Of a stretch of DNA of 52,483 bases, positions 2,016 through 52,483 are shown piece by piece. The notes under the pieces were generated by a model. That model saw only the letters and a list, made by a program, of their open reading frames with translations, had not been told where the DNA came from and searched no databases. This stretch comes from a virus. Made by a program: the position numbers and the translations under genes. The stretch is taken from positions 1 to 52,483 of the IMG/VR virus record IMGVR_UViG_3300038825_001129, one strand, 5' to 3'. The stretch's first letter is position 1. The number at the start of each line of letters is the position of its first letter.

Positions 2016-2023
2016 TATCTTTG
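2016..2023 (+). promoter_or_regulatory. Bacteroidetes -7 promoter element TATCTTTG
   Basis: Exact match to the Bacteroidetes -7 consensus TAnnTTTG, 22 bases upstream of the ATG at 2046 and directly after a terminator. No convincing -33 TTG was seen at the usual spacing. Confidence 0.6.
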
Positions 2024-2921: not shown

Positions 2922-2929
2922 TAAATTTG
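2922..2929 (+). promoter_or_regulatory. Promoter element TAAATTTG, five bases from ATG
   Basis: Exact TAnnTTTG match. Only five bases separate it from the ATG at 2935, so transcription would begin at or next to the start codon, giving a leaderless or nearly leaderless mRNA. Confidence 0.6.
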
Positions 2930-2934
2930 ACATT

Positions 2935-3351
2935 ATGAAAAAGAAACAAGGATACAACGCTCGCCTAGATGAATCTATTGGTATGCGTGACGGAAAAAAA
3001 TCTCAGTCTTTAAAAGATCGAAGAGACGAGAGTAAAGGAATGGAAAAAGCTTCTGGTAAAAGAGCTTACAGCGCAGACAAATCTATGGATCAGATTATGA
3101 TGGGCGGAGGCAAGATGAAGCAAATGTATGAAAGCGGAGGAATGATCAAAGCTATTCTAAAAGACCCTAAGCAAAGAGCAATGGCTCGAAAGTTTATGCA
3201 AGGCTATAATGATCGTTTAGATGAGTCTATGGGAATGCGTGATGGAAAAGCCTCTAGCAAGAAACAATCAATGAAAGATCGTAGAGATGAGAGCTCTGCA
3301 ATGGAGCCTCGTAAATATGGTGCTGTAAGCACAATGAAATACAGAAAATAA
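2935..3351 (+). CDS. Basic protein with internal duplication (RLDESxGMRDGK repeats)
   Basis: 138 residues, highly basic. Two copies of the same unit are visible: YNARLDESIGMRDGK then LKDRRDESKGME (about 7-38), and YNDRLDESMGMRDGK then MKDRRDESSAME (about 91-123). They are joined by a linker with MYESGGMI (Y65, G68, G69). The RLDES-GMR unit occurs in small marine-phage proteins of unknown function. It sits between the transglycosylase and a structural protein, so it is probably packaged in or attached to the head. This is inferred from context. Confidence 0.65.
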   Translation: MKKKQGYNARLDESIGMRDGKKSQSLKDRRDESKGMEKASGKRAYSADKSMDQIMMGGGKMKQMYESGGMIKAILKDPKQRAMARKFMQGYNDRLDESMGMRDGKASSKKQSMKDRRDESSAMEPRKYGAVSTMKYRK

Positions 3352-4179: not shown

Positions 4180-4187
4180 TAATTTTG
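4180..4187 (+). promoter_or_regulatory. Promoter element TAATTTTG for scaffold-capsid unit
   Basis: Exact TAnnTTTG match, 25 bases before the ATG at 4213 and directly after a terminator. A TTG at 4162-4164 is a possible but closely spaced -33 element. Confidence 0.6.
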
Positions 4188-7767: not shown

Positions 7768-7775
7768 TATATTTG
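7768..7775 (+). promoter_or_regulatory. Promoter element TATATTTG for connector-tail unit
   Basis: Exact TAnnTTTG match between the terminator at 7738 and the ATG at 7793 (17 bases downstream). Confidence 0.6.
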
Positions 7776-14350: not shown

Positions 14351-14358
14351 TAATTTTG
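14351..14358 (+). promoter_or_regulatory. Promoter element TAATTTTG, four bases from ATG
   Basis: Exact TAnnTTTG match, followed by TAAT and then ATG at 14363. It implies a leaderless mRNA for the internal virion protein unit. Confidence 0.6.
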
Positions 14359-14362
14359 TAAT

Positions 14363-15370
14363 ATGAAAAAGAAAGAGAAAAAATATCAATTAGGAGGATA
14401 CGTTAACCTAGCAACTGGGTTAGGTCAGGCTGCTTTAGGTATAGGACAATTCCGAAGAGGAGGTAGAGACTTAGCTCAAGTTGACTCGTTAGAAGCTGGA
14501 ATGATCAGATCTGAAGCCGCTAGAAAAAGAATGGCTCAACAGCAAACTGATGCAATGAGAGGTATGCAATCCATTACTCGTAATATGGCCACAGGTGTAG
14601 AGGCTTTAGGAAGACGAGGAACTAGGGCTTTAGTTGGTGGTGTTCAAGGTCTTCAAGCCGCTGCAGATAGAGCTACGCAATCTTATTTAGACAAGTATGG
14701 AAGTGCTTCAGCCGCTAGAGATAGACAGTTAGAGCGTGCTGACTTTGGAGAGACAGCTCGAAGAGTTGAAAGAGATCGTCAAAGAGCACAAATGCTTAGA
14801 GATGCTGGTTATCAAAACATTTTTAGAGGTGCAAGTCAAGCTATAGGCGGAGGTTTAGATTTGATTCCTACTAAGAAAACAGAAGATGTTAAATCTTTAG
14901 ATGAAATAAGAGAAGAAAAAAATGCATTGAAGTTAGCGGCAGATGAAAAAAAATTAACTCAAGACACAAAAAGAGAGTTTGATGCTTTAGATAAGTTAAA
15001 AGAAAATTTAGCTCAAGATGTTGAGATTAGTTCTATTCCTAGACCTAAAGTTCCATCTAGTGTTGAAGATGCAGAAATACTAGACGCTATTGCTCTTGAA
15101 GATACAGAGGCTTACCTTGCTGATCCTTCTTTAAGGAGTTTAATGGGATTTAAAAAAGGTGGTAAAGCTAAAAAGACTCCAGGCAAGTTTTCTCACAAAG
15201 AAAACCCTATTGATATAATGCAGAAAGGCTCTAAGATTGGAGAGATGACAGGAGGAGAATACATTTTTAATCCTGATCAAGCAAAACAATTAAAGTCTTT
15301 ATCTAAAAAAGGTAATACACCTTTACACAAGTTTGTAAACAAGATGCTTAATAAATCACAATTTAAATAA
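14363..15370 (+). CDS. Putative small internal virion (ejection) protein
   Basis: 335 residues, helical and charged. Begins MKKKEKKYQLGGYV (Y8, G11, G12), then a Gly/Ala-rich amphipathic stretch (LATGLGQAALGIGQFRRGGR) and long helices with many Arg/Gln. A second Gly-Gly site FKKGGKA (263-269) precedes KKTPGKFSHKENPIDIM and MTGGEYIFNPDQAKQL, a C-terminal segment known from flavophage virion proteins. It is the first of three genes in tandem after the tail nozzle gene, the place of T7 gp14-16-like ejection proteins or crAss cargo proteins. The role is inferred from position and composition. Confidence 0.6.
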   Translation: MKKKEKKYQLGGYVNLATGLGQAALGIGQFRRGGRDLAQVDSLEAGMIRSEAARKRMAQQQTDAMRGMQSITRNMATGVEALGRRGTRALVGGVQGLQAAADRATQSYLDKYGSASAARDRQLERADFGETARRVERDRQRAQMLRDAGYQNIFRGASQAIGGGLDLIPTKKTEDVKSLDEIREEKNALKLAADEKKLTQDTKREFDALDKLKENLAQDVEISSIPRPKVPSSVEDAEILDAIALEDTEAYLADPSLRSLMGFKKGGKAKKTPGKFSHKENPIDIMQKGSKIGEMTGGEYIFNPDQAKQLKSLSKKGNTPLHKFVNKMLNKSQFK

Positions 15371-36088: not shown

Positions 36089-36090
36089 AA

Positions 36091-36558
36091 TTATTTTGAA
36101 TTTAATGTGTATATAATTTCGTTTGAACTTTCTTTCACAAAAGTCAATTTAAAGCCTATTTTATTTAAGATTGACTCCATACAATTAAAACCGCAACCGC
36201 CATCTACATAAGATTGCGTTTTTGTTGTAGCTCTTTTTAAATGTCTACGTGAATGGCTTTTTGCTTTTGGGTTATAGTGTGTAAGCCCATAAAAACCGTC
36301 TCTTTTTCGGTTTACATTTCCGCCGATATCCGAAGGTAATTTTTTCAATTCCTCATTGAAATAGGTATTTATCAAATCACCAAGAACAGTACCTTTTTTG
36401 TCATATCCGTACCCACTAGCAAAAAATTTTGTCTTGTCGTTTCTTTTGTCATAGATTCGACAGACTCCCGATCTTGACCATTTAAAACATAGTGTTTTAA
36501 GTCTCCAATTCTCATTTAGAAAATCCTCTTTTTGCTTGTTCGTTAATAAAGTTTTCAT
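36091..36558 (-). CDS. First gene of early small-gene cluster, 155 aa, unknown
   Basis: From the ATG at 36558 (an in-frame TTG at 36627 is rejected). The N-terminus MKTLLTNKQKEDFLNENWRL leads to RSGVCRIYDKRNDKTKFFASGYGYDKKG and SYVDGGCGFNCMESILNKIGF. Basic, with four Cys. The GYGYDKKGTVLGDLIN and DGGCGFNCME motifs recur in small phage proteins of unknown role. Upstream there is a CGACTTTG promoter-like string at about 36617-36624 (two mismatches to TAnnTTTG). Confidence 0.5.
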   Translation of the reverse strand: MKTLLTNKQKEDFLNENWRLKTLCFKWSRSGVCRIYDKRNDKTKFFASGYGYDKKGTVLGDLINTYFNEELKKLPSDIGGNVNRKRDGFYGLTHYNPKAKSHSRRHLKRATTKTQSYVDGGCGFNCMESILNKIGFKLTFVKESSNEIIYTLNSK

Positions 36559-36635
36559 ATCTGTTTTTGTTGTTAATATTTTGCTAATGTAGTTAAAAAC
36601 TTGTTGAAAACCTACAAAGTCGCACAATAATTTTT

Positions 36636-36843
36636 TACAGCACTAGCAAAAAATATGCTCAAATCCACAGCAGTAAAAGAACCAACGACACAAAAAAAAT
36701 TTCTAAATAATTTAAAAAATAGAACTTTTGACAGCTCTTAAATAAACTTTTTTAATTACTGCAGTAAAAAATAAACACGTAAAAAACTCTAAAATGACAG
36801 CTCAAAAAATTAGATCATTTTAAAAAAATTACAGCTCAAAAAA
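36636..36843 (+). repeat. Iteron-like ACAGC repeats
   Basis: Short repeats with core ACAGC start at 36637 (TTACAGCAC), 36667 (CCACAGCAG), 36731 (TGACAGCTC), 36797 (TGACAGCTC) and 36831 (TTACAGCTC). The last three share T-rich or A-rich flanks. Intervals are 30, 64, 66 and 34 bases, close to multiples of 32 (three helical turns). TTACAG also occurs inverted at about 36951, 37169 and 37218. Confidence 0.45.
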
Positions 36844-37243
36844 ATAAATCAAGCACGCAACTTTTTTAGGTCATTAAAATCATAGAAAAATAGTAGGGGG
36901 GTTTTTGGGGGGTGATTGTGCGAGGGAAGGTAAGAACTCAAATTAATTTTCTGTAACTGAATCAATGCGAAAATAGCTAAATGTCTGAACTAGGGGCAGT
37001 TAGGTAAGGGTACTTAATGTAATACAGCAAAACTTTTGGCGATCAACTATTTACAAGGACCCCCCTTTGATTTTCTAAGCGTTTTGGTTTTGGAATTCTA
37101 ACAATTATGTATGTATATAGTCCCCACGAAAAACATATCTCAGCACTTTTTTCGAAAGGTATAAGTAGCTGTAAATGAATTACTGGAGTTATAAGTTATA
37201 TAGTCTGTATTAAGTGTCTGTAATTGGATTAATTACGTTTAGA

Positions 37244-37415
37244 GCAGAATATTGTCTGCGGCTAAAAAATTTTAGACAAAATAGTGGCCCTTAGTCCCTG
37301 GCGTCTTCCAATTAAGTTCTAGAGCTTCTTACCAGACGTTTCTTGTGGGGTTTGGGCTGGGGGCCCACCCACTGCGTCACTTGTTCTTATTCTAGTAAGC
37401 TCGTTAAAGTGTGAC
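37244..37415. other. Run of hairpins (structured element)
   Basis: Consecutive potential stems: GCAGA/TCTGC at 37244-37259; CTAAA/TTTAG at 37262-37275; GTGGG plus TGGGC paired with GCCCA plus CCCAC around loop TGGGG at 37345-37372; and nested GTC/GAC, ACTT/AAGT and CTTA/TAAG at 37376-37415. No T tract follows, so these are not simple terminators. Confidence 0.4.
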
Positions 37416-37492
37416 AGTTTTAAAAGAACGGTGTGAAGGTACTACAAAAAAAATGAAAAGTCAATAGTAAAGTAATACTTTAAGTAAACCTC

Positions 37493-37771
37493 TTAATGTT
37501 CCTTTCTGTGACAGTTAGCACATAGCACTCTACACAGTTTAATCTCTTCCATAACCAAGTCAAAAGAACAATCTTTAATTAAATCAGCTATATGTCCTCT
37601 TTTAGTAGAGGGGTCTATGTGGTGGAACTCTAGACATCGAGTATGTGTTTCTCCACATATCTCACATTGTAGTGTTTTCTTATAATCTTCTAGTCGTTTT
37701 CTTTTTCGGTTTCTGTATTCCCTTTTCTGCCTTCGCTTCTTTTCCTTCTTTGTTTCTTTAAGCTCTGACAT
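37493..37771 (-). CDS. HNH endonuclease
   Basis: 92 residues. The first 33 residues are extremely basic (KEKKRRQKREYRNRKRKR). The core has CEICGETHTRC (Cys36, Cys39), LEFHHIDPSTK with His50-His51, and LCRVLCANCHRKEH (Cys84, Cys87, His88): zinc-ribbon plus HNH catalytic motif. Small free-standing phage HNH nucleases act as homing enzymes or in packaging or replication. Located next to the gene-free region; no intron is visible. Confidence 0.8.
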   Translation of the reverse strand: MSELKETKKEKKRRQKREYRNRKRKRLEDYKKTLQCEICGETHTRCLEFHHIDPSTKRGHIADLIKDCSFDLVMEEIKLCRVLCANCHRKEH

Positions 37772-37784
37772 TACTGTTGAAATA

Positions 37785-37862
37785 TTATTCGGATAGAAAT
37801 GTATATAGCGAGAAAGCCCCCGAAAGAAATAACAACGAGAGTATATAGAGAATTAGTAACAT
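37785..37862 (-). CDS. Membrane micropeptide, 25 aa
   Basis: MLLILYILSLLFLSGAFSLY then TFLSE: almost entirely hydrophobic, one membrane helix. It starts three bases after the stop of the upstream gene. Real only if translation is coupled. No homologue is known to me. Confidence 0.35.
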   Translation of the reverse strand: MLLILYILSLLFLSGAFSLYTFLSE

Positions 37863-37865
37863 AGT

Positions 37866-38063
37866 TTAGTAGATCCTGTCGTTAGGGGCCTTTGTTACAT
37901 TGACAGCTTTATAATCCCCTTTATGTTTTATTTCTATGTAATCTTTTAGATCATACTTAGAAGAAACATCCACATTATATGTAGTCCCATCACTTTTATA
38001 ATAGGTGCGGATATGACTAAGAGATATTTCTTCTCCTGTATCCTTATGTTTAAACTTGATCAT
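37866..38063 (-). CDS. Small beta-rich protein, 65 aa
   Basis: Basic: IKFKHKDTGEEISLSHIRTY, then DYIEIKHKGDYKAVNVTKAP. Predicted all-beta, two hairpins. It starts three bases after the DUF5675 gene, so it is in the same unit. No family recognised. Confidence 0.5.
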   Translation of the reverse strand: MIKFKHKDTGEEISLSHIRTYYKSDGTTYNVDVSSKYDLKDYIEIKHKGDYKAVNVTKAPNDRIY

Positions 38064-38066
38064 TTC

Positions 38067-38537
38067 TTAAATATACAACGTACTTGTATCATAATTGACA
38101 TACGTTATGGTAACCTCTTCTCCATTTTCTATGGCAGCAGCAATTTTAGGATATATTCTTTTGTAAGCAGAAACGCTCTGTCCGATAAATCCTTTACTGT
38201 AGTCTGAAGAGTTACCCACCAATAAACAACCTGCGGTATGCTCATCGGTATTCCCTGTATGTATTAATATGTATTCAAATCCAGGAACGTCTTTTACCCA
38301 AAGCATTCCTTTGTGCATATCCTTGTATTTCTCTGAATATCTTTTATGGAATCCTCCGACAGTTCGAAGTTCTACCTTATAGACACCGCTAGGTATTCGA
38401 GTTTCTCCTTTTACTTTCACATCTCTGTGTTCGTCTTCAAGGGTGTATGCTAAAAATTTTGTATCGTATGTAATGTCCATTAGAATTCCGAGAGTTCTAT
38501 CTGGACCGCTATCATATCTTAGGACCTTTAGTCTCAT
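38067..38537 (-). CDS. DUF5675 (L,D-transpeptidase-like) protein
   Basis: 156 residues matching the DUF5675 pattern: TLGILMDITYDTKFLAYTLED, GETRIPSGVYKVELRTVGGF and the signature YILIHTGNTDEHTAGCLLVG with His93 and Cys104, the same His...GC arrangement as YkuD-type L,D-transpeptidases. The family is common in phages near lysis genes and may act on peptidoglycan, but activity is not established to my knowledge. It is the first gene of the leftward arm, divergent from the late arm, which is odd for a lysis enzyme. Confidence 0.75.
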   Translation of the reverse strand: MRLKVLRYDSGPDRTLGILMDITYDTKFLAYTLEDEHRDVKVKGETRIPSGVYKVELRTVGGFHKRYSEKYKDMHKGMLWVKDVPGFEYILIHTGNTDEHTAGCLLVGNSSDYSKGFIGQSVSAYKRIYPKIAAAIENGEEVTITYVNYDTSTLYI

Positions 38538-38567
38538 TTCAATGTATGTTGGTTTGCGTAAAGTTAC

Positions 38568-38575
38568 TAAATTTG
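38568..38575 (+). promoter_or_regulatory. Promoter element TAAATTTG, four bases from ATG
   Basis: Exact TAnnTTTG match followed by TTGT and ATG at 38580. A TTG at 38549-38551 is a possible -33 element. It opens the rightward arm in a 42-base divergent intergenic region; the opposite strand carries TAACTTTA there, a one-mismatch form for the leftward arm. Confidence 0.65.
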
Positions 38576-38579
38576 TTGT

Positions 38580-38741
38580 ATGAGTAAATTCAAGAAACTT
38601 GTAGGAGAACTACAGAAGCAAGGCAAGTCCGAAGAGTCAGCAAAAAAGATTGCTTATTCTATTGGCGCGAAGAAATATGGAAAAGCAGGAATGGCAAGGA
38701 AGGCTGCCGCTGGTAGAAGGAAGAAGTACAGAACCAAGTGA
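38580..38741 (+). CDS. Small basic protein (KKLVxxLxxQGKS...AAAGRRKK family), 53 aa
   Basis: MSKFKKLVGELQKQGKSEES, then AKKIAYSIGAKKYGKAGMAR and KAAAGRRKKYRTK. A helix-turn-helix-like pair of amphipathic helices with a very basic end, a well known short family in marine phages with no assigned function. Basic charge suggests DNA binding, possibly condensation inside the head. First gene of the rightward arm under a leaderless promoter. Confidence 0.7.
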   Translation: MSKFKKLVGELQKQGKSEESAKKIAYSIGAKKYGKAGMARKAAAGRRKKYRTK

Positions 38742-40334: not shown

Positions 40335-40342
40335 TATCTTTG
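40335..40342 (+). promoter_or_regulatory. Promoter element TATCTTTG for structural arm
   Basis: Exact TAnnTTTG match inside the 29-base gap between the divergent regulator start (40329) and the ATG at 40359 (16 bases downstream). Confidence 0.65.
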
Positions 40343-41368: not shown

Positions 41369-41376
41369 TATATTCG
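41369..41376 (+). promoter_or_regulatory. Promoter-like element TATATTCG, four bases from ATG
   Basis: One-mismatch TAnnTTTG (TTCG) followed by TAAT and ATG at 41381, the same spacing as other leaderless candidates. Confidence 0.4.
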
Positions 41377-41380
41377 TAAT

Positions 41381-41680
41381 ATGAATTACGAAGACCGATC
41401 AGAACTTTTTATTAAGATACAGTCAAAGCTTGATGAGCTTATGGATCTTGTTGATGAAGTAGAGGGGTCTAATGAATTTATGTCACTATATTGTTTTGGT
41501 ATAAACGCAGACGATATAGAAAACCCAAATGGAGATGTTTATGAATACTTCACAGGTTTTTCTGCTGACAATCCAGAGGAAATAAAAATGATGCTCGAAA
41601 CTGTTGCTAAAAACTATTTGAGTTCTTTAGGGCAAAATTCTGAGCCAACAGATTCAATTGACTATTGGTTAAATCTTTAA
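41381..41680 (+). CDS. Acidic small protein, 99 aa
   Basis: From the ATG at 41381 (an in-frame TTG at 41366 is rejected). MNYEDRSELFIKIQSKLDEL, then an acidic helical domain with EEIKMMLETVAKNYLSSLGQ. Acidic overall and helical. Belongs to the run of small genes before the packaging genes. No family recognised. Confidence 0.55.
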   Translation: MNYEDRSELFIKIQSKLDELMDLVDEVEGSNEFMSLYCFGINADDIENPNGDVYEYFTGFSADNPEEIKMMLETVAKNYLSSLGQNSEPTDSIDYWLNL

Positions 41681-41908: not shown

Positions 41909-42148
41909 GTGGAATTAATTAGAAAAATAGTAGTGGGTACAAACCCCAAGGATGCAATGGCCTACTTTGTAGGTCAACGTGCTGGCGAGTCAAAAGTAGA
42001 CTCGATAATTTTAGACGAGAGAGCTTTATCTCAGTATGGTGTTAAAAGATATTTAGTTTATTTATCTCACCCTGATGATGGATTAATGTTATGGAAAACC
42101 ATAGACAATATGCCTTGTTTAATTGAACACGATTGCGAATTCAAATGA
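41909..42148 (+). CDS. Small protein, 79 aa, GTG start
   Basis: ELIRKIVVGTNPKDAMAYFV after the GTG, then VDSIILDERALSQYGVKRYL and an end rich in acidic and Cys residues. Mixed alpha/beta. The ATGA overlap with the GroES-like gene indicates coupling. Family unknown. Confidence 0.5.
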   Translation: MELIRKIVVGTNPKDAMAYFVGQRAGESKVDSIILDERALSQYGVKRYLVYLSHPDDGLMLWKTIDNMPCLIEHDCEFK

Positions 42149-42786
42149 AACCCATAAGAAAGTTTATTGTAAAAATCCCCAAGGCTGTAAACGATGTTAT
42201 AAAGCTAGGCGGGAAAGAAATATTTATAGACTCTAAGTTTACTGAGTTTGATCACAGAGCTTATGAGGGTGAGGTAGTTGGAACTCCATTGTTTTATGAT
42301 ACGGGTGTAGAAGTAGGCGATACTCTTTACTTTCATCATCACGTTGTTTTAGGTGGTAATCATTTTATTGCGGGAGACAAGCAATTAGAAGAGCAAGACC
42401 GAAGAGGACAGTTTATATATTCCAATTCTGATTTATACTATGTAAACTACTCTTATCAATTTGATCCATTATGGAATCAAGCATATGCTTATAAGAGTAA
42501 AAGAACAGGAGAGATAAAACTCTTAGGTCATTATGTTTTTCTCAAGCCTGCAGAACAAGAAGATGAATTAAAGTCTGATTTACTAGAATTATTACCTCAA
42601 GAAAAGCCGCCCAATCAATATGGATACATAGAGTTTGAAAGTGAGAAAACTAAAGAGCTCGGATTAAAAAAAGGTGATAAAGTTTATTTTATTAAAAATG
42701 GAGATTACTCTATGGAAATAGATGGACAACATTTATATAGAGTATATTTAGAAAATATTTATGCGAAAATCCCAGAACAAGTATGA
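42145..42786 (+). CDS. GroES-like co-chaperonin (two-domain)
   Basis: 213 residues from the ATG in the ATGA overlap. The C-terminal half, YGYIEFESEKTKELGLKKGD then KVYFIKNGDYSMEIDGQHLY and RVYLENIYAKI, has the pattern of cpn10/GroES: GDKVxF, a hairpin with a polar residue pair, then an ExIxA end. The N-terminal half repeats the theme (VGTPLFYDTGVEVGDTLYFHHH). Phage co-chaperonins (T4 gp31) work with host GroEL to fold the capsid protein. Its place upstream of terminase suits a morphogenesis role. Recognised by pattern, not alignment. Confidence 0.55.
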   Translation: MKPIRKFIVKIPKAVNDVIKLGGKEIFIDSKFTEFDHRAYEGEVVGTPLFYDTGVEVGDTLYFHHHVVLGGNHFIAGDKQLEEQDRRGQFIYSNSDLYYVNYSYQFDPLWNQAYAYKSKRTGEIKLLGHYVFLKPAEQEDELKSDLLELLPQEKPPNQYGYIEFESEKTKELGLKKGDKVYFIKNGDYSMEIDGQHLYRVYLENIYAKIPEQV

Positions 42787-43057
42787 CAATGTAGCTACAG
42801 CTAGAAACCTTATGGAATCTATGCAGATAGCTATTGAAAATATGATTCAAGAAATACAGAAGCCTGTAGATCAAGAATTGTCAGGATCTCAGAGAAAGGC
42901 TGAGTTGCAATCTATAAAACAAACAGCGGTTGACGCAAAAGAATTAATTGTTGAAAGAGAGAAGTTACAGCAGCTCGTAAAAACTCTTGAAGAAAAAGGA
43001 GAACTAAAAGATGCACAAGACTATTCAGGTGGATTTGCAGAACAATATTCCAAGTGA
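42761..43057 (+). CDS. Putative terminase small subunit
   Basis: 98 residues, overlapping the upstream gene by 26 bases. An N-terminal helical part (NVATARNLMESMQIAIENMI) is followed by a coiled coil (QRKAELQSIKQTAVDAKELI, then EREKLQQLVKTLEEKGELKD) and a short acidic-polar tail. Helical, coiled-coil small proteins directly upstream of TerL are typical small terminases, which bind DNA and regulate the motor. No clear helix-turn-helix is visible. The call rests mainly on position. Confidence 0.45.
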   Translation: MRKSQNKYDNVATARNLMESMQIAIENMIQEIQKPVDQELSGSQRKAELQSIKQTAVDAKELIVEREKLQQLVKTLEEKGELKDAQDYSGGFAEQYSK

Positions 43058-43074
43058 TGATTTAATATATTGGA

Positions 43075-45174
43075 ATGATGAGTGGAATAAAAAACATAGA
43101 CGAAGATATAGTAATCAATATATGCCCCGATAACAGTGAAGGGGATATTATTTCTATTTCAAATCTAGATATACAGGTCCCAGCAAAGCCACCTAAGTCT
43201 AAAATATTATTTTACAACAAAAAGAAAGAAGATCAAAAATGGGAAAGACAAGAGCTTCCCGATGAACTAAGAAAAATAAAGTCAATGGATGAATGGCTTG
43301 ATATGCCAGATGTATTCAGAAATAAATACCATAACTATATAACACAAGAATATGAAAGACGCAGAAAAGGAATTTGGTTTTACAATAACGGAGAGCCAAC
43401 TTATATCACAGGAAACCACTATTTCTTCCTCCAATGGTCTAAAATTGACGTGGGATACCCAAGCTTCTTATCCTTCCAACGTGATTTATTCCTACATCTC
43501 GAAGCCTGTATAACTGACAGTAGAAGTTTAGGTCAGATCTATGTAAAGTGTAGACGATCTGGATATACACAAATGTCTTCAGCCTTATTAGTGAACGAAG
43601 GCTCTCAAGTAAAAGATAAACTTTTAGGCATAATGTCCAAGACAGGGGCTGATGCTCAAGAGAATATTTTTATGAAAAAAGTTGTTCCTATTTATAAGTC
43701 TTACCCTTTCTTTTTTAAACCTATTCAAGATGGTACTACTAATCCTCGAATGGAATTAGCTTTTAGAGAACCCTCAAAACGTATAACTAAAAAAGTAAAA
43801 ACATCTGTAAAGGGAGAAGCATTAAACACTGTAGTAAATTGGAAGAGTACAACTAACAATGCTTATGATGGAGAAAAACTACATATGCTTTATATGGATG
43901 AAGCTGGTAAATGGGAAAAGCCCACAGACATAAGGGAGTCTTGGAGAATACATAGGACTTGTTTATTAGTAGGTAGAAGAATTGTTGGAAAGGCCCTTGT
44001 TGGAAGTACAGTTAATCCTCTAGATAAAGGGGGTAAACAATTTAGAACGCTAGTAAGAAATAGCGACCCGAATGAGAGGAATGAAAACGGAAGAACAAAA
44101 AGTGGTTTATACAGCATATTTGTTCCAGCATACGAAGCACTAGAGGGGTTTTTTGATCAATACGGAAAAGCTGTAGTAGATGACCCTGAAACTCCCATTG
44201 TTGGATTAGACGGTGATCTAATTACTATAGGAGCTAGAACATTCTTAAAAAACGAAAGGAAAGCTTTAGTAAATGACAGCTATGAATTAAACGAAGTAAT
44301 ACGACAGTTCCCATTTACTGAAGATGAGGCTTTTAGAGATAGTGCTAAAGCTTCAGTATTTAATGTTCAAAAAATATATGAGCAAGTCCAATATAATCAA
44401 GAGCTCTTTCCATCCCCTGTTGTTCAAGGTAATTTCATTTGGAAAAACGGAGTAGCAGATACAGAGGTTTTATTTAAGCCAGACGCGAATGGAAGATGGA
44501 ATATATCCTGGATGCCACCTATTGAGTTAAGAAATAAAAAAACTCCTGAGAACAATTGGTTAGGTGTAGGTGGTGTTGACTCCTATGATATTGACGCAAC
44601 CGTAGATGGTAGAGGATCTAAAGGAGCTTGTCATTTATACAATAAATTTAATATGACTCATCCATCAAATATGTTTGTTGCTGAGTATGCGTCAAGACCT
44701 CCTCTTGCTAAAATATTTTATGAAGATGTATTAATGGCTGCACGATTTTATGGTTACTCTATATTAATAGAGAACAACAAATATGGTATCGCTAGACATT
44801 TTGAATCTAGAGGCTATTCACATTTTCTGTTAGATAGACCTGATCATTTAGGAACAGGATTTGGTACTAAAACAAAAACAAAAGGTATCCCTTCTAACTC
44901 TCAAGATGTTATACACGCTCACGCTCAAGCAATTGAAGCTTACATACATTCTCACGTAGGGCTCAACGAAGAAACGTTAACTCACGGAAATATGTATTTT
45001 GACAAAACATTAGAAGATTGGATTAATTTTAAAGTAGACAATAGAACTAAATATGACCTTTCTATATCTAGTGGGTTAGCATTACTTGCTGCACAAGGTT
45101 CTTCTGTTAAAAAAGAGAAAACGGACTTTAGTGAAAAAAAGTTTTTCAGAAGTGGTCACGTTATATTACGGTAA
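43075..45174 (+). CDS. terL: Terminase large subunit
   Basis: 699 residues (a second ATG follows immediately). N-terminal part includes GIWFYNNGEPTYITGNHYFF (99-118) and KIDVGYPSF, a signature I know from terminases of crAss-like and related Bacteroidetes phages. Walker A-like KCRRSGYTQ (158-166), Walker B LYMDEAG (272-278), and a C-terminal RNase H-like nuclease with GGVDSYDID (about residue 500), ILIENNKYG and HAHAQAIEAYI. It pumps DNA into the prohead through the portal encoded 38 bases downstream. Longer than the common 450-600 residues, in keeping with the crAss-like group. Confidence 0.88.
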   Translation: MMSGIKNIDEDIVINICPDNSEGDIISISNLDIQVPAKPPKSKILFYNKKKEDQKWERQELPDELRKIKSMDEWLDMPDVFRNKYHNYITQEYERRRKGIWFYNNGEPTYITGNHYFFLQWSKIDVGYPSFLSFQRDLFLHLEACITDSRSLGQIYVKCRRSGYTQMSSALLVNEGSQVKDKLLGIMSKTGADAQENIFMKKVVPIYKSYPFFFKPIQDGTTNPRMELAFREPSKRITKKVKTSVKGEALNTVVNWKSTTNNAYDGEKLHMLYMDEAGKWEKPTDIRESWRIHRTCLLVGRRIVGKALVGSTVNPLDKGGKQFRTLVRNSDPNERNENGRTKSGLYSIFVPAYEALEGFFDQYGKAVVDDPETPIVGLDGDLITIGARTFLKNERKALVNDSYELNEVIRQFPFTEDEAFRDSAKASVFNVQKIYEQVQYNQELFPSPVVQGNFIWKNGVADTEVLFKPDANGRWNISWMPPIELRNKKTPENNWLGVGGVDSYDIDATVDGRGSKGACHLYNKFNMTHPSNMFVAEYASRPPLAKIFYEDVLMAARFYGYSILIENNKYGIARHFESRGYSHFLLDRPDHLGTGFGTKTKTKGIPSNSQDVIHAHAQAIEAYIHSHVGLNEETLTHGNMYFDKTLEDWINFKVDNRTKYDLSISSGLALLAAQGSSVKKEKTDFSEKKFFRSGHVILR

Positions 45175-45184
45175 ATTGAATAAC

Positions 45185-45192
45185 TATATTTG
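45185..45192 (+). promoter_or_regulatory. Promoter element TATATTTG before portal gene
   Basis: Exact TAnnTTTG match 20 bases before the ATG at 45213, in the short gap after the terminase gene. Confidence 0.6.
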
Positions 45193-45212
45193 CATTTAAG
45201 ACTGTTTAAAGT

Positions 45213-47660
45213 ATGTCATACACTCAAACTAGTAATGGAGCTTCATCTTTTCCCGATGCTTTAGCATCGACTGAAGAAAAAATGTCTCTTTCTTACGGAT
45301 TAAAATACGCCAAAGCTATTTATGCTCAGTGGGCGGGCAGCGATTACGAAAATTCATTATATGGAAGAAGGTACAGAGAGTTTCAAATAAATAGAGATTA
45401 TGCTCAAGGTACTCAAGATACTTCTATATATAGACAAATACTTTCATCATTAGATCCTAATAACGGTAGTGGAGCTCTATTAACTTTAGATTATACACCA
45501 GTTCCTATTGTACCAAAGTTTGCTAAAATAGTCGTAAATAAAATATTGTCTAAAGATCCATATCCTCAAGTAGAGGCTGTTGATCCTTTATCAAGGTCAG
45601 AAAAAGAGCAAAAGAAAAATGCTGCTATTCTTAGAATAGAAAATAAAGAAATGATTAAGGAAGCTAAAAGCTTAGGTCTTAATGTAGAAGTAGACCCTGA
45701 TAAACTTCCTGACACTCCTGAAGAAACAGAAATATTCTTAGACACTAATGTAAAGACAGATGCTGAAATAGCTGCACAATTGGGTGCACAGATGACTCTT
45801 GAGTGGAATGACTTTAATGACAAGATATACAGAAGATGTGTCAACGATTTAGTAACAGTAGGAATGGCTGTTGTTAAAAGAAACAATGATCCAAATTATG
45901 GAATCACAGAAGAGTATGTTGACCCAGCTTTCTTTATTCACAACTATACTGATGATCCTTCTTTATCAGACTTAACCTATGCTGCTCATTTTAAGAAGAT
46001 CACAATTATGGATCTTAAAAGAGTTGCAAGAGATCAATTTACCGAAACTCAATATGAGGAGTTAGCTCGTACAGTTATGAATAAGTATGGTAACGACCCT
46101 CAAAATTTCTTAACACAATACACTCCTTATCAGCTTGATGGAAGCACATACAGATATGGATATGATGATTACAAGATTGAAATATTAGAGTTTGAGTTTA
46201 GATCTGTAGATAATATTATATATGAGAAGAAAGAGTCTATGTTTGGTAACATTGGATTCTATCACAAAGGAACTGAATATAATGCTCCTCAACAATCTGT
46301 ATATGACCGCAAGGCTGTTTATATGCCTAACGCAACTATTTATGGAGGTAAGTTTATTGTGGGAACTGATTATGTTTATGATTATGGAGTTCAAAAGAAC
46401 ATACCTAAAAATGTACACGATATATCTAAAGCACAACTATCTTATTCTTGCGTAGCTACAAACTTGCGTAATATGCTTCCTAAGTCTTTAGTTGGTAGTG
46501 TGGTTGGTTTTGCTGATATGCTTCAGATTACTCATTTAAAGATTCAGCAGTCTATTGCTAAAGCAAAGCCTGATGGTCTTATTATAGATATTGAAGGGTT
46601 AGAAAATGTACAGCTAGGTAAAGGGGGAGAGCTACAGCCTTTAGAAATACAAGACATCTACGAACAGACAGGTGTTTTTTATTATAGATCTAAGGACCCA
46701 GAAGGTTCTTTTCAAAATCCTCCAGTTAGAGAGATTGGTAATAGAATAAGAAATATACAAGAGCTAGTTGCTATTTATAATCATTACCTAAGAATGATTC
46801 GTGACGCTACAGGAATTAATGAAGTTGTAGACGGAACTACTCCAAAAGGCGATGCTTTAGTTGGTGTAAGAGAACAAGCAATTAGCGCAGCAAATAATGC
46901 TCTTTATGATATTACAAATGCATCGATGGTTCTTTATAAAAAGGTATGCTCTGATATTGTGAAATGTTTGCAAGTATTACCTCCAAAAAGCATTATATAT
47001 AAAACATATACAAACGCGATTGGAGAAACTAATATGGCGGTTTTATCTTCTTTCAGTAATTTGTCAATGTATAACTTTGGAATTAAAGTAGTTTCTGAAC
47101 TTAACGATAGTGATCGTCAATACTTAGAACAAAATATTCAAATAGCTTTAGCTCAAAAAGAAATAGACCTTGAAGATGCAATTGCTGTAAGACAGTTAAG
47201 AGATGTTGAGCAAGCAGAAAGATTATTAGTTGTTAGAAGAAAGAAAAGAATTAAAGCTCTACAAGCTCAAGCTCAAGAAAAAGCTCAAGTCACTGCTCAA
47301 ATAAATGCTCAACAAGCAGAAATTTCAGGTCAAGTAGAAATGCAGAAAAAGCAATTTGAAGCTCAATTAGAGGCTCAAAAACTAGAACTTGAAACTGCTT
47401 CTAAAATGCAATTGATGGAACTTCAATATACTTTTGATATGCAATTGCTACAGGCTAAAGGACAATTTGACGTTGTTGAACAACAAATAGAAAGTGGTGT
47501 CAAACAACAAAATGACACAATGAAAGAAGATAGGAAAGATGAGCGAATTGAACTCTCTGCTATAGAGCAGTCTAAGCTCATTGCCCAACGTAAAGGAGAA
47601 ACGGGACCCATTACTGAAGGCGAAGAAGACAGTCTCGTAGACTTGATCTTAAATCAGTAA
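45213..47660 (+). CDS. Portal protein
   Basis: 815 residues. The middle (about 90-640) mixes helices and strands with the typical portal features DYTPVPIVPKFAKIVVNKIL, MTLEWNDFNDKIYRR and NYGITEEYVDPAFFIHNYTD. The last part (about 660-800) is a very long coiled coil rich in Gln/Ala/Glu/Lys (QAQAQEKAQVTAQINAQQAE onward), which would form the barrel or crown inside the head. The length of 815 fits large podoviral portals. Position directly after TerL agrees. The dodecamer forms the DNA channel at one capsid vertex. Confidence 0.85.
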   Translation: MSYTQTSNGASSFPDALASTEEKMSLSYGLKYAKAIYAQWAGSDYENSLYGRRYREFQINRDYAQGTQDTSIYRQILSSLDPNNGSGALLTLDYTPVPIVPKFAKIVVNKILSKDPYPQVEAVDPLSRSEKEQKKNAAILRIENKEMIKEAKSLGLNVEVDPDKLPDTPEETEIFLDTNVKTDAEIAAQLGAQMTLEWNDFNDKIYRRCVNDLVTVGMAVVKRNNDPNYGITEEYVDPAFFIHNYTDDPSLSDLTYAAHFKKITIMDLKRVARDQFTETQYEELARTVMNKYGNDPQNFLTQYTPYQLDGSTYRYGYDDYKIEILEFEFRSVDNIIYEKKESMFGNIGFYHKGTEYNAPQQSVYDRKAVYMPNATIYGGKFIVGTDYVYDYGVQKNIPKNVHDISKAQLSYSCVATNLRNMLPKSLVGSVVGFADMLQITHLKIQQSIAKAKPDGLIIDIEGLENVQLGKGGELQPLEIQDIYEQTGVFYYRSKDPEGSFQNPPVREIGNRIRNIQELVAIYNHYLRMIRDATGINEVVDGTTPKGDALVGVREQAISAANNALYDITNASMVLYKKVCSDIVKCLQVLPPKSIIYKTYTNAIGETNMAVLSSFSNLSMYNFGIKVVSELNDSDRQYLEQNIQIALAQKEIDLEDAIAVRQLRDVEQAERLLVVRRKKRIKALQAQAQEKAQVTAQINAQQAEISGQVEMQKKQFEAQLEAQKLELETASKMQLMELQYTFDMQLLQAKGQFDVVEQQIESGVKQQNDTMKEDRKDERIELSAIEQSKLIAQRKGETGPITEGEEDSLVDLILNQ

Positions 47661-47665
47661 ATTTG
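47658..47665 (+). promoter_or_regulatory. Promoter element TAAATTTG, four bases from ATG
   Basis: Exact TAnnTTTG match overlapping the portal stop, followed by TATT and ATG at 47670. It starts the tail-fibre operon. Confidence 0.65.
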
Positions 47666-47669
47666 TATT

Positions 47670-48062
47670 ATGGCTACCTGTAACACATCTTCTCTTTCTG
47701 TTGACTTAGATATCTCCCAACAAGTAAATGTTACTTGTAGAAAAGGAGATTCATTTGATTTACAATTTACCGTAAAGAACTCTAGTGGAGCTTTAATTGA
47801 CCTTACTTCTTATACTTTTAATATGCAAGTAAGAACTAGCGATAATGCATCTTCACCTACAATTCAAACTACAGGAGATGTAGCAACAGGATTTAAAATT
47901 ACTGGAACCGCCTCTGGGGTCGTTACAGTTGAAAGTTCTGCTTCATTTATGCAAGGCATAAGTGCTGCGACCTATGTGTATGACTTGGTAGCAACAGTAT
48001 CAACTACAGTTCAGACTTGGTTCTTTGGTACTTTTGTTGTTAACCAAGACATTACTCAATAG
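47670..48062 (+). CDS. BppU-N-like fibre adaptor, 130 aa
   Basis: All-beta: SQQVNVTCRKGDSFDLQFTV, then IDLTSYTFNMQVRTSDNASS, and AATYVYDLVATVSTTVQTWF ending FGTFVVNQDIT. The order (KGDSF, two strand pairs, then T-x-x-FGTFVV) is like the N-terminal domain of baseplate upper proteins that anchor fibres. It heads the tail-fibre operon and probably attaches the fibres to the tail. Its stop overlaps the next GTG by one base. Confidence 0.55.
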   Translation: MATCNTSSLSVDLDISQQVNVTCRKGDSFDLQFTVKNSSGALIDLTSYTFNMQVRTSDNASSPTIQTTGDVATGFKITGTASGVVTVESSASFMQGISAATYVYDLVATVSTTVQTWFFGTFVVNQDITQ

Positions 48063-48721
48063 TGGCCGATTCATTAAACATAGTAATCAATGAGGATCTT
48101 AACAATGTACTTGTTACAGTTCCTTCTACATCGCCTGTAACTTCTGTAATACAGCCACAAAATAATATATCTATAATTACCGCTGCTAACTCTGGATCTT
48201 TTGTTTCAGATGTTTTAGCTGGACTAGGAATAGCTGTAACTCAGTCAGGAAGTTCATCAACGGTTTCTTTAAAAAATGCTGCAAATTTTACAAACTCGAC
48301 AATACTAAAATGGAACACTAGCAATGGTGAATTTAGTGACAGTATAATTACTGATATTGGGACAAAGATTGGTATTAATCAATCTACACCTACAGCTAAC
48401 TTACACGTTGAAGGAGATTTACGTTTAACTGAAGAACTTTATGATTCTACTAACGCTGCAGGAACAAACGGTCAAGTATTAACAAGTACAGGAAGTGGTA
48501 TTGCGTGGAGTGATTCTGTAGCTGATAAAACTCAAGTTTTTAATGTTACTGTTGCTGCTACCGTTTGGGATTTAACTCACTCACTAAATAAATATCCTTC
48601 AATAACAACAGTTACAGGAACTGATGATAATCAAGTTTATGGTGTTGCAGAGTACGTCTCAACAACAAGAGTTAAAATAACATTTTCAACTGCCATAACA
48701 GGCAAAGCATTTTTAAACTAA
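48062..48721 (+). CDS. Short tail fibre protein, 219 aa
   Basis: GTG start overlapping the upstream TAG by one base (TAGTG). Beta-rich with DVLAGLGIAVTQSGSSSTVSL and the fibre motif IGTKIGINQSTPTANLHVEG (around 100-120), the same repeat type as in the large fibre. C-terminal domain has FNVTVAATVWDLTHSLNKYP, ending VKITFSTAITGKAFLN, shared with other small fibre proteins. Probably a short side fibre. Confidence 0.65.
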   Translation: MADSLNIVINEDLNNVLVTVPSTSPVTSVIQPQNNISIITAANSGSFVSDVLAGLGIAVTQSGSSSTVSLKNAANFTNSTILKWNTSNGEFSDSIITDIGTKIGINQSTPTANLHVEGDLRLTEELYDSTNAAGTNGQVLTSTGSGIAWSDSVADKTQVFNVTVAATVWDLTHSLNKYPSITTVTGTDDNQVYGVAEYVSTTRVKITFSTAITGKAFLN

Positions 48722-48727
48722 GAAACT

Positions 48728-50218
48728 ATGGCAATAAATTTTTTAAATAACGTAGACTTTAATCTTAACCAGTTAAAAAAACTGGTTATAGATAATGAGA
48801 TAAATGACGCTGCGGCAGGGTCTGGTGTTGCGGGTCAAATATATTATAACAGTACAAGTAATATAATTAAATTTTATAATGGATCCTCTTGGTCAGAAGT
48901 AGGCGGTGGTGTTACTACTGTCACAACTACAGATGGTACTTTTATTAATTTAACACCTAATACCGCAACCTCTGGAGCTGTAACGGTAACTGCAGATCTT
49001 TCTGCAACAGGTACAGCTGGTAATACAACTTTTCTACGAGGTGATAACGCTTGGGCAATACCCGCTGGAACTTATAATTTTGAAATAAAAGGAGATGCGG
49101 TTGGAACCACAACTGTAGAGTCTGGACAAACAGTAGCTATACTTGGCGGAAGTAACATTACAGCTACTCTATCTACTAGAACAGTAACTATAGATTATAC
49201 TGGTGGAACAGGATCAATGTCTACTTGGAGACTTGCTGCAGATGGTGGAACAACTAAAACTATTGACGATGGTGAAGTTGTTTCTATAGATGGAGGAACG
49301 CATATAGACACCGAAGTTGGAGGAAGTGATACAGCTCCAACAATTACTATATCTACAGATGCTACAAGCGCAAGCACAGCTAGCAAATTAATGTCAAGAG
49401 ATGCTAGTGGTTTTAGTAATGTAGCGACACCAGCTTCAGGAGATAGCTCTACTAAAATAGCTACCACAGCGTTTGTTCAAGCTGCACTTACTGGTTTATT
49501 AGAGTTTAAAGGTGGTTTTAATGCTAACACTGGTGCTATAGTTGGTGGTGGTAATCTAACAAGTGGTGCATCAAGAGTTGCAATTGCAGTTGGTGATTAC
49601 TATGTTGTAACGGTTGCTGGTAATTTTTTCGGAAACACTGCAACACCATTAACACCAGGAGATTCAGTTATAGTTCAAACAGCTGCGGCTGAAGGAGCTT
49701 CTACTGAAAGTGATTTTATAGTTGTACAGTCTGATACTGATTTAGCTACACTTACAACAGTTGGTATAGGTAATGTGAACGCATCGGCAACTTCAGGTAT
49801 AGATGTTTCATACACTTCAGGTACCGCAAATCTGGTTATAGATGTAAACGAAGTTTCAGCTTCTACAGATACTCCAAATAAAATATTAGGTACAGATCAA
49901 AGCAACAATACTAAAACGTTTACAGAAGCAGAGTTTTTTCAATTTAGATTTAAAAAGCTTTCTTTAGATTCATCAAATGCGGCAATAACAAGAACTACTC
50001 CTGTTGGATTAACAGAATACACTATAGATCCAAGTAATGCTGCTGCTTTTGGTGGTACTGCTTCCGCTTTAAATATATCTGTTGAAGTGTTAGACAACAG
50101 CGATGGTCGTACTGTATATGCTGATATAACTAGATCAGATGCTGCAGAGTTAAAAATTATATTTACTGGAGCAGTAACAGATGGATCTTACGATGTACTT
50201 TTGACTAACTTAGGATAA
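48728..50218 (+). CDS. Tail fibre protein, 496 aa
   Basis: Starts MAINFLNNVDFNLNQLKKLV, then GSGVAGQIYYNSTSNIIKFY. Mostly Gly/Thr/Ser beta, with GDNAWAIPAGTYNFEIKGDA and repeats such as TATLSTRTVTIDYTGGTGSM. The middle has KIATTAFVQAALTGLLEFKG, known from fibres of marine phages (TTAFVxxAL). The end is a beta domain with LTEYTIDPSNAAAFGGTASA. N-terminus MAINFLNN is the same as in the large fibre, so both probably anchor at the same site. Confidence 0.75.
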   Translation: MAINFLNNVDFNLNQLKKLVIDNEINDAAAGSGVAGQIYYNSTSNIIKFYNGSSWSEVGGGVTTVTTTDGTFINLTPNTATSGAVTVTADLSATGTAGNTTFLRGDNAWAIPAGTYNFEIKGDAVGTTTVESGQTVAILGGSNITATLSTRTVTIDYTGGTGSMSTWRLAADGGTTKTIDDGEVVSIDGGTHIDTEVGGSDTAPTITISTDATSASTASKLMSRDASGFSNVATPASGDSSTKIATTAFVQAALTGLLEFKGGFNANTGAIVGGGNLTSGASRVAIAVGDYYVVTVAGNFFGNTATPLTPGDSVIVQTAAAEGASTESDFIVVQSDTDLATLTTVGIGNVNASATSGIDVSYTSGTANLVIDVNEVSASTDTPNKILGTDQSNNTKTFTEAEFFQFRFKKLSLDSSNAAITRTTPVGLTEYTIDPSNAAAFGGTASALNISVEVLDNSDGRTVYADITRSDAAELKIIFTGAVTDGSYDVLLTNLG

Positions 50219-50240
50219 TAATTTAATAAAATAAAGCTAT

Positions 50241-52483
50241 ATGGCTATCAATTTTTTAAACAACCCCAAGGTAGGAGATAACGTTAAAATTGAAGTTGGT
50301 GATTCATCGGATTTAACAATATTCCACGATGGAAATAGTATTATAAGAAATACTGTTGGAGATTTATATATTGATAATTATGCAGATGATAAAGATATAA
50401 TCTTTAGAAGTGATGATGGTTCAGGAAGTCAAACAGCGTATATAACAATAGATGGTAGTGATGTTTTAACTAAAATGCACAAGAGTGTAAGGCATTTAGA
50501 TGGTGTTAAGGCTTTGTTTGGTGCTTCTGATGACCTACAGATTTATCACGATGGAAGTAATAGTTACATTTCAGATGTAGGTACAGGAGAATTGTTAATC
50601 AGAAGCAATTTAGTTGCAATACAAAACGCAGCAGGAACAGAAAATATGGCGAAGTTTGATGATGATGCAGGGGTAAAACTTTTCTATGATGATTCACAAA
50701 AATTTGAAACCACAAGTTCAGGGGTTAAGGTTACTTCAGAAGGTTATCAAATAAATATAGAAGATAGTAGTAGTGGAAATATAAGCGAAATACTTACATC
50801 TAATAATGCTATGGGCTTTTTTGCAGACAGAGCAAATTCTGTAGCAAGTACATCAATGATATTTAGCGTTGATAATACAACAGCATTAACTATTGATGAT
50901 TCACAAAACGCAACTTTTTCAGGAGCTGTAACGATAGATTCTTCAACTGCAACTTTAAATATAAAAGGTTCAGATACAGGCGCAAGTTTAATAAACTTTG
51001 CAGATGCCTCTGATGGTAATGTTGGTAGAATTTATTATGACCATACAAGTAACTTTATGCAGTTTAAAGTTAATGATACTGAAAAAATGCGTATTACCAG
51101 TGCGGGTAATGTAGGAATTGGAGAAGCTAGCGTTGATGCAAGGTTACACATTACAACAGCAACTGCAGGTTTAGTAAATCAAAAGTTTGAAAGTGCTGGT
51201 TCAGCAGCTTGGAGACTTGGTATACCTGCTAGTCAAACTTATTTTGCTTTTGACAATGCTAATGATAATTTATCATCACCTAAGCTTATTATCAGTAGCT
51301 CAGGAAACTTAGGTATTGGAACTACATCTGCTACAAACAAGCTTACGATTTCAGACAACTCAGCTCAAATTCTTTTAATAGATACTTCTACAAGTAACAA
51401 AGGAGAAATAGAAATTGGCGATGCTGATTTTACTTTTAATTTAGACAGAGACGGTGGTATATCTAGTGGTAAGTTTGCTTGGAGAATAGATGACATAACT
51501 AGGATGGAACTTGGTCTTGATTCTGGTGACTTAGGTCAATTAAGATTAAATGAATACGGATCTGGAAATATAACAGGTACAGCCACTAAGCTTTTGGGTG
51601 TTGATGAAAATGGTTATATTATAGAAGAAAGCACTTCTGGCGGTGGTACAGTAACTGGAACAGGCGCTGCTACAAGGGTTGCTTTTTGGTCAGGCACTTC
51701 AGCGTTGTCAAGTGATGCAAATCTTTATTGGGATAATACTAATGATAGATTAGGAATTGGGACTACTAGTCCTGACACTTTGCTTGAGTTAAAAGGAACA
51801 AATCCTATATTGACAGTTAGAGATAATACTACTGCATTATCAGATGCTAATGCAACTTTAAGACTTGCTGAATCAGGAGCTAATGACACTTTAGGTAACT
51901 ATTGGGATTTAAAAATGGCACCTGAAGCAGTAGGAGGAAGTACAAATTTTGCTATTACAAATAGCACGATAGGAAATGCTTTTTATATAAATTATGAAGG
52001 CAACGTAGGAATTGGTACTACTTCTCCTACAGTGAAACTTGCAGTAGAACAAAATGTCAATTCTTCAGCAAGTATACTAGTAAGTAATCCTAATACTGGA
52101 ACAGGAGCAAGGTCTAACTTAATTCTTACATCAGACGCTGCAAGAATTGATATGTATGCTACTTCATCAACTTACAATGGAGTTTCAAGCTGGACAGACG
52201 CGGGTGTAATAACTACAAGTAGTGCAACAAGCGGTGGTTTAATATTAAATGCTCAATCTGGTGATATTAAGTTTCAACAAGGAACTTCTGAAAAGATGCG
52301 TATCAACAGCTCAGGAAATGTGGGAATTGGAACTACTTCTCCTAGTTATAGATTAACTGTTAACGACTCAACTGCAAACGGAAGAGGTATTCAAGTAGTT
52401 CAAAGTGCAACTTCAGGAACTAACTATGGTATTCAAGGTGGTGCTTATGGTTCAGGAGCAACAAAAAACATAGGATTATCAAT
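50241..52483 (+). CDS. Large tail fibre/adhesin, N-terminal part (continues at base 1)
   Basis: ATG at 50241 opens a frame without stop to the window end: 747 codons plus two bases, which join base 1 to make ATT and continue to the stop at 1150, total 1130 residues. Starts MAINFLNNPKVGDNVKIEVG, followed by repeated strands of the DLQIYHDGSNSYI type. Contains five copies of the G-N-V-G-I-G-T-T-S-P type repeat here (about nt 51107, 51300, 51750, 52006, 52314) and four more in the left part. EKMRI precedes several of them. Typical trimeric receptor-binding fibre of a marine phage. Confidence 0.8.
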   Translation, partial: MAINFLNNPKVGDNVKIEVGDSSDLTIFHDGNSIIRNTVGDLYIDNYADDKDIIFRSDDGSGSQTAYITIDGSDVLTKMHKSVRHLDGVKALFGASDDLQIYHDGSNSYISDVGTGELLIRSNLVAIQNAAGTENMAKFDDDAGVKLFYDDSQKFETTSSGVKVTSEGYQINIEDSSSGNISEILTSNNAMGFFADRANSVASTSMIFSVDNTTALTIDDSQNATFSGAVTIDSSTATLNIKGSDTGASLINFADASDGNVGRIYYDHTSNFMQFKVNDTEKMRITSAGNVGIGEASVDARLHITTATAGLVNQKFESAGSAAWRLGIPASQTYFAFDNANDNLSSPKLIISSSGNLGIGTTSATNKLTISDNSAQILLIDTSTSNKGEIEIGDADFTFNLDRDGGISSGKFAWRIDDITRMELGLDSGDLGQLRLNEYGSGNITGTATKLLGVDENGYIIEESTSGGGTVTGTGAATRVAFWSGTSALSSDANLYWDNTNDRLGIGTTSPDTLLELKGTNPILTVRDNTTALSDANATLRLAESGANDTLGNYWDLKMAPEAVGGSTNFAITNSTIGNAFYINYEGNVGIGTTSPTVKLAVEQNVNSSASILVSNPNTGTGARSNLILTSDAARIDMYATSSTYNGVSSWTDAGVITTSSATSGGLILNAQSGDIKFQQGTSEKMRINSSGNVGIGTTSPSYRLTVNDSTANGRGIQVVQSATSGTNYGIQGGAYGSGATKNIGLS

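What the first reader, a model, noticed from the sequence alone, without database searches (positions are those of the whole stretch)
47658..47672. Recurrent TAnnTTTG-N4/5-ATG: leaderless late mRNAs
Exact -7 elements lie only four or five bases before the ATG at 2935 (TAAATTTG, 5), 14363 (TAATTTTG, 4), 38580 (TAAATTTG, 4) and 47670 (TAAATTTG, 4), and one-mismatch forms at 21743 (GAACTTTG, 4) and 41381 (TATATTCG, 4). As transcription in Bacteroidetes starts a few bases after this element, the mRNA would begin at the start codon. Each case begins a transcription unit. The same spacing six times is unlikely to be accidental. Other units (2046, 4213, 7793, 40359, 45213) have 16-25 bases between, so two promoter classes exist.
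Basis: partly seen in the sequence, partly recalled or inferred. Interest (0 to 1): 0.6.

Follow-up and report, generated by a model that had tools for sequence, protein, structure and literature searches.

The report
Phage promoters starting mRNA at AUG
This virus of Flavobacteria-type bacteria places several promoters exactly four or five letters before a gene's start codon, so the messenger RNA should begin at the start codon itself; distant relatives keep the same spacing, although the trick is already known as a minority habit in the host bacteria.

Summary
All reported sites exist at the stated coordinates. Four exact TAnnTTTG elements lie 4-5 nt before a gene's ATG; shuffled upstream regions give 0.13 on average and never 4 in 1000 trials. 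The two one-mismatch sites are not individually significant. Across 1.37 Mb of related phage DNA, the distance from TAHHTTTG to the next gene ATG is bimodal: 65 cases at 4-5 nt (control motifs 1.4), background level at 7-11 nt, a second peak at 16-27 nt. The class is gene-specific: all 22 homologues of the 47670 gene in which an element was found have it at exactly N4, down to 35-50% protein identity. Flavobacterium data place the transcription start 4-5 nt after this element (PMC6847099), so the ATG is predicted to be +1. Corrections: three of the four are internal promoters without a terminator in front, packed into 9-25-nt gaps; the two classes share one -7 element and differ in leader length. 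Leaderless mRNAs are already known in the hosts (5.5% in F. psychrophilum); here they make up about one third of -7-linked starts versus about 17% in host DNA by the same method. No transcript has been mapped.

The parts
47658..47672 (+). -7 element TAAATTTG (47658-47665), spacer TATT, ATG of the 47670 gene; the TAA is also the stop codon of the portal gene 45213-47660
   Evidence: all 22 homologous contexts found with an element have TAHHTTTG-N4-ATG
2922..2937 (+). -7 element TAAATTTG, N5, ATG of the 2935 gene
   Evidence: kept as TAAATTTG-N5 in L096, protein 81% identical
14351..14365 (+). -7 element TAATTTTG, N4, ATG of the 14363 gene, 19 nt after the stop of the 1690-aa structural gene
   Evidence: 7 of 8 family members leaderless with the upstream stop 7-12 nt before the element
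38568..38582 (+). -7 element TAAATTTG, N4, ATG of the 38580 gene (first gene of the rightward run)
   Evidence: kept in L001, L003 and L082
38559..38566 (-). divergent -7-like element TAACTTTA (one mismatch), 21 nt before the ATG of the DUF5675 gene 38067-38537; 1 bp from the + strand element
   Evidence: L003 has an exact TAACTTTG there; relatives have exact back-to-back pairs
41369..41383 (+). weak -7 form TATATTCG, N4, ATG of the 41381 gene
   Evidence: kept in L001, L081, L003; exact TAAATTTG-N4 in L004
21731..21745 (+). weak -7 form GAACTTTG, N4, ATG of the 21743 gene (75 aa, hydrophobic, holin-like by inspection)
   Evidence: conservation mixed
2016..2023 (+). leadered promoter TATCTTTG, N22, ATG 2046, after terminator 1985-2005
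4180..4187 (+). leadered promoter TAATTTTG, N25, ATG 4213, after terminator 4121-4145
7768..7775 (+). leadered promoter TATATTTG, N17, ATG 7793, after terminator 7734-7759
40335..40342 (+). leadered promoter TATCTTTG, N16, ATG 40359; gene family leadered in 28 of 28 classed members
45185..45192 (+). leadered promoter TATATTTG, N20, ATG 45213 (portal); family leadered 44 to 2
   Evidence: portal by PHROG 6547
47670..48062 (+). gene directly after portal, 130 aa, PHROG 1084, probably a virion (head) protein by position
   Evidence: leaderless start kept in relatives

Best explanation
The elements are ordinary promoters of the host's primary sigma factor (sigma-ABfr type) placed so that the transcription start falls on the A of the ATG. 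Host RNA polymerase recognises TAHHTTTG and starts 4-5 nt downstream, giving an mRNA with no leader whose 5'-terminal AUG is bound directly by the ribosome. No Shine-Dalgarno sequence is needed, which fits hosts that hardly use one. Within the rightward, mostly structural gene run these promoters are squeezed into gaps of 9-25 nt, so a gene such as 47670 can also be read, with a leader, on transcripts running through from the portal gene. A second set of genes uses the same -7 element with a leader of about 12-21 nt. Which mode a gene uses is conserved. Shown by sequence: exact spacing, statistical excess, bimodality, conservation and ATG-only use at N4. Inferred: the start site itself, translation without a leader, and late timing.
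For: Window: 4 exact N4/N5 cases against 0.13 expected, 0 of 1000 shuffles. Relatives plus window (1.37 Mb): 52 at N4 and 13 at N5 against 1.4 for control motifs, background level at N7-11, 155 at N12-31 against 25.5. The cases span 20 protein families, and class is homogeneous within families (1765 same-class pairs against 1100 shuffled, 0 of 1000). All 22 homologues of 47670 with an element have N4 while the proteins drop to 35-50% identity. Other relatives keep the same Met as start but have no element there and sit directly behind the portal stop, so the motif is not part of the start context. At N4 there are 52 ATG and no GTG or TTG. Base -1 is T in 77% of cases at N4 and N5 against 56% in leadered genes. 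Published: -7 to start-site distance of 4-5 nt and consensus TAHHTTTG with no clear -33 motif (PMC6847099); both match the logos here. Terminase relatives include phages of Flavobacterium, Cellulophaga, Maribacter and Tenacibaculum. In isolates the same N4 arrangement coincides with annotated starts (Panino 68090 and 71067, MW202828 39733, elemoA 30242).
Against: No 5' ends have been mapped in this virus or its relatives. The host is inferred from homology, not known. Published leaderless fractions in the hosts are low (5.5%, PMC9723704; 3.7% under 10 nt, PMC7366714), so efficient leaderless translation there is not demonstrated at scale. A few homologues have elements 7-8 nt from ATG (L160, L163). 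Loci overlap and homologues are not independent; with family weighting the N4-5 class is about 15 of 77 weight units. The ORF-based count gives higher host fractions than published start-site maps.
Confidence: 0.85

Rival explanations
1. Compaction by-product: the promoters are real and the mRNAs leaderless, but the N4 spacing merely reflects short intergenic gaps in a dense phage genome, with no benefit from having no leader.
For: Leaderless sites lie mostly in 9-25-nt gaps and leadered ones mostly in gaps of 32 nt or more; at 47658 the element overlaps the portal stop codon.
Against: Compaction alone should give a spread of 0-12 nt leaders; instead N6-N13 is nearly empty while N4-N5 is strongly enriched. 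The divergent 38580 case has 42 nt of room and still uses N4. A longer leader could be had by moving the element into the upstream gene.
Confidence: 0.35
2. The motif is a translation signal (a Kozak-like or AT-rich start context), not a promoter.
For: It sits in the ribosome-binding window; Bacteroidota use A-rich contexts such as A at -3 (PMC6847099).
Against: It matches the sigma consensus; the fixed G lies at -5, which is not a favoured context base; the same 8-mer occurs with strong excess 16-27 nt upstream of other genes; homologous starts in another clade lack it.
Confidence: 0.04
3. Chance matches in AT-rich DNA.
For: The window is 34% GC and holds 60 TAnnTTTG sites; the two one-mismatch sites are within chance individually.
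Against: Shuffles, control motifs and recurrence across 20 protein families.
Confidence: 0.01
4. The annotated ATGs are not the true starts; translation begins at a downstream start, giving short leaders.
For: Start codons were not determined experimentally.
Against: Homologues align from this Met; 47670 homologues begin at the same point in both promoter-bearing and promoterless clades; only ATG occurs at N4.
Confidence: 0.05

Closest known systems
Leaderless mRNAs of Flavobacterium and Bacteroides (F. johnsoniae, F. psychrophilum, B. thetaiotaomicron)
   Same: Same -7 element TAHHTTTG, same predicted 4-5 nt to the start site, leader of zero or nearly zero length (PMC6847099, PMC9723704, PMC7366714)
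   Different: In hosts a small minority (5.5%; 3.7% under 10 nt); here about one third of -7-linked starts by the ORF-based method (17% in host DNA by the same method), tied to particular gene families and to short gaps in the structural gene run
Sigma-ABfr (primary sigma of Bacteroidota) promoters, -33 TTTG / -7 TAnnTTTG
   Same: -7 element identical
   Different: No -33 TTTG visible here, as also reported for F. johnsoniae
Leaderless phage mRNAs such as the lambda case (cited as the first leaderless mRNA in PMC3160421)
   Same: Transcription start at the AUG
   Different: Here several, mostly structural, genes read from Bacteroidota-type promoters
Pseudo-symmetrical bidirectional promoters of E. 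coli (PMC12825309)
   Same: Two back-to-back sigma elements drive divergent genes; one polymerase excludes the other
   Different: In several relatives both divergent genes are predicted leaderless, with about 27-29 bp between predicted starts, against 18 bp as the commonest distance in E. coli; in the window only one side is leaderless

Membership tests
Sigma-ABfr promoter | -7 element TAHHTTTG | tested here: met
   Four exact leaderless sites in the window; excess over control motifs in relatives
Sigma-ABfr promoter | -33 TTTG element | tested here: not met
   No such motif in logos of 20 leaderless and 53 leadered families; PMC6847099 found it weak in F. johnsoniae too, so it is not a reliable criterion there. 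Filed as 'works like', by the -7 element
Sigma-ABfr promoter | host uses this sigma factor (Bacteroidota) | tested here: inconclusive
   Terminase and portal relatives include isolates from Flavobacterium, Cellulophaga, Maribacter and Tenacibaculum; the host of this virus itself is unknown
Leaderless mRNA | 5' end at the start codon | not testable with these tools
   Predicted from the 4-5 nt distance in PMC6847099; no transcript data
Leaderless mRNA | AUG start codon | tested here: met
   52 ATG, 0 GTG or TTG at N4
Leaderless mRNA | translated without upstream ribosome-binding sequence | not testable with these tools
   Would need a reporter or ribosome profiling
Late genes | expressed late in infection | not testable with these tools
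   Gene content is structural (portal, terminase, virion proteins) but timing is unknown

The most novel reading that the evidence does not exclude
Leaderless initiation is a conserved, gene-specific expression mode of these phages: the same virion genes are kept leaderless, and others leadered, over large protein divergence, which could let the phage tune protein output when ribosome or initiation-factor balance shifts during infection. In some relatives a compact bidirectional promoter of about 28 bp drives two leaderless genes as a mutually exclusive switch.
Probability: 0.25. Interest if true: 0.65.

Novelty: new member of a known kind. Interest (0 to 1): 0.4.

Why it matters
That gives gene-finding a start-codon signal for viruses of hosts without Shine-Dalgarno sequences, and offers a natural set of leaderless and leadered genes for studying initiation on Bacteroidota ribosomes.

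Tried and rejected
Sigma-70 type promoters: no excess over shuffles. Rfam: no hits. tRNAs: none. Nucleotide similarity to isolate phages (megablast, window 42000-52483): none. A -33 motif: absent. Back-to-back exact -7 pairs in the window: none (the minus element has one mismatch). The 2935 homologue set (L097-L175) was of little use, as many are preceded by Shine-Dalgarno-like AGGAG sequences and probably infect other hosts. phi13:2, phi14:2 and Gundel_1 gave no N4/N5 case in the 50 kb sampled of each; phi38:1, crAss001 and FCL-2 gave one each, so the trait is not equally strong in all Bacteroidota phages. Searches of the held papers found none describing leaderless mRNAs in phages of Flavobacterium or Bacteroides; that library lacks most subscription journals.

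Full report
Setting. The window is most of a 53.9-kb IMG/VR virus record. Genes run rightward from about 38.6 to 52.5 kb and from 1 to 23 kb (terminase, portal, virion proteins, tail fibre, endolysin-like), and leftward from 38.5 to 23.2 kb (primase/helicase, exonuclease, many small genes). Terminase and portal match phages of Flavobacterium, Cellulophaga, Maribacter and Tenacibaculum at up to 41% (terminase) or 31% (portal) identity among named isolates, so a Flavobacteriia-type host is likely but not proven.

Observation. Every coordinate, sequence and spacing in the finding is right. For 73 gene starts, an exact TAnnTTTG at 4-5 nt occurs four times; dinucleotide shuffles of the upstream regions give 0.13 on average and never four in 1000 trials. 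Allowing one mismatch gives 9 against 2.7. The four exact sites are therefore firm and the two mismatched ones are not, although 41381 gains support from relatives.

Relatives. Loci were collected with the terminase and the genes 47670, 14363 and 2935 and extended. Counting from each TAHHTTTG to the next ATG that opens an ORF of at least 50 codons gives 52 cases at N4 and 13 at N5, 6 at N7-11 (controls 6.6), and a broad peak at N16-27. Eight scrambled motifs give 1.4 at N4-5. The N4-5 cases belong to 20 protein families. Class goes with family: 47670 homologues 22 of 22 leaderless, 14363 homologues 7 of 8, portal 2 against 44, the 40359 gene 0 against 28. The 47670 case is the most telling: the proteins have diverged to 35-50% identity, yet the element, its distance of exactly four bases and the ATG remain, while another clade has no element and starts the same gene directly behind the portal stop codon.

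Mechanism. In F. johnsoniae the start site lies 4 or 5 nt after TAHHTTTG (PMC6847099). N4 and N5 are thus exactly the spacings that put +1 on the A of ATG. At N4 only ATG is used, never GTG or TTG, as expected for 5'-terminal AUG recognition, and the base before the ATG is a pyrimidine in 85-92% of cases against 64% in leadered genes. The scarcity of N6-13 means that leaders of about 2-9 nt are avoided. The same -7 element serves both groups and no -33 motif is seen in either, so these are two leader classes of one promoter type.

Architecture. Leadered promoters in the window at 2016, 4180 and 7768 follow strong terminators at 1985-2005, 4121-4145 and 7734-7759. Leaderless ones do not: in relatives 1 of 62 leaderless against 14 of 151 leadered sites has a terminator within 110 nt (random positions 2 of 300), and leaderless gaps to the upstream gene are mostly 9-25 nt while leadered ones are mostly 32 nt or more. 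At 47658 the TAA of the element is the portal stop codon, and the same overlap occurs in 10 of the 22 homologous contexts. So 2935, 14363 and 47670 are internal promoters, and their genes are probably also carried on longer transcripts. Only 38580 begins a run, at the single divergent junction of the window, where its element lies 1 bp from a near-consensus element on the other strand.

How special. The same count on 0.88 Mb of Flavobacteriia host DNA gives 26 at N4-5 (controls 5.2) and a corrected leaderless fraction of 0.17, against 0.33 in the phage group (odds ratio 2.4 on raw counts, p = 0.0007; homologues not independent). Published start-site maps give 5.5% in F. psychrophilum (PMC9723704) and 3.7% under 10 nt in B. 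thetaiotaomicron (PMC7366714). The phenomenon is therefore known in the hosts and about twofold enriched here; the new part is its conservation by gene in this phage group. Other Bacteroidota phages sampled show it weakly or not at all.

Verdict. Observation confirmed. Leaderless interpretation likely (0.85) but unproven without 5'-end mapping. 'Begins a transcription unit' and 'two promoter classes' need correction, and 'late' remains an inference.

Noticed in passing
L014, L017, L019, L031, L033, L043, L044 (divergent junction); compare window 38535-38582: Two back-to-back -7 elements (for example CAAAGGTA-CCC-TATATTTG) make up nearly the whole 26-28-nt gap between divergent genes, both predicted leaderless or nearly so; one gene is always the DUF5675 family, the other differs. 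Looks like a mutually exclusive bidirectional promoter.
   Followed up: partly
window 36628-37492: About 865 bp without a convincing ORF, containing G and C runs and repeats of 'acagctcaaaaaa'; no Rfam match. Could be an origin or regulatory region.
   Followed up: no
window 23157-38537, minus strand: Of 37 leftward gene starts only one has an exact TAnnTTTG within 60 nt (23682-23689, N27, gene 23157-23654); the replication genes probably use long transcripts or another promoter type.
   Followed up: partly
window 1985-2005, 4121-4145, 6836-6858, 7734-7759: Strong terminator-like hairpins with T runs separate units of the rightward structural genes; three are followed at once by a leadered promoter.
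   Followed up: yes
window 2935-3351 and L097-L175: Repeat-bearing basic protein (MKKKQGYNARLDES...) with relatives in many phages; elsewhere its start is often preceded by AGGAG-like sequences, in this lineage by a -7 element.
   Followed up: partly
MT497087.1 57477-57902 (elemoA): The annotated start at 57477 may be wrong: a TATCTTTG-N4-ATG places a leaderless start at 57495, right after the 1470-aa structural gene, the same position as window 14363.
   Followed up: partly
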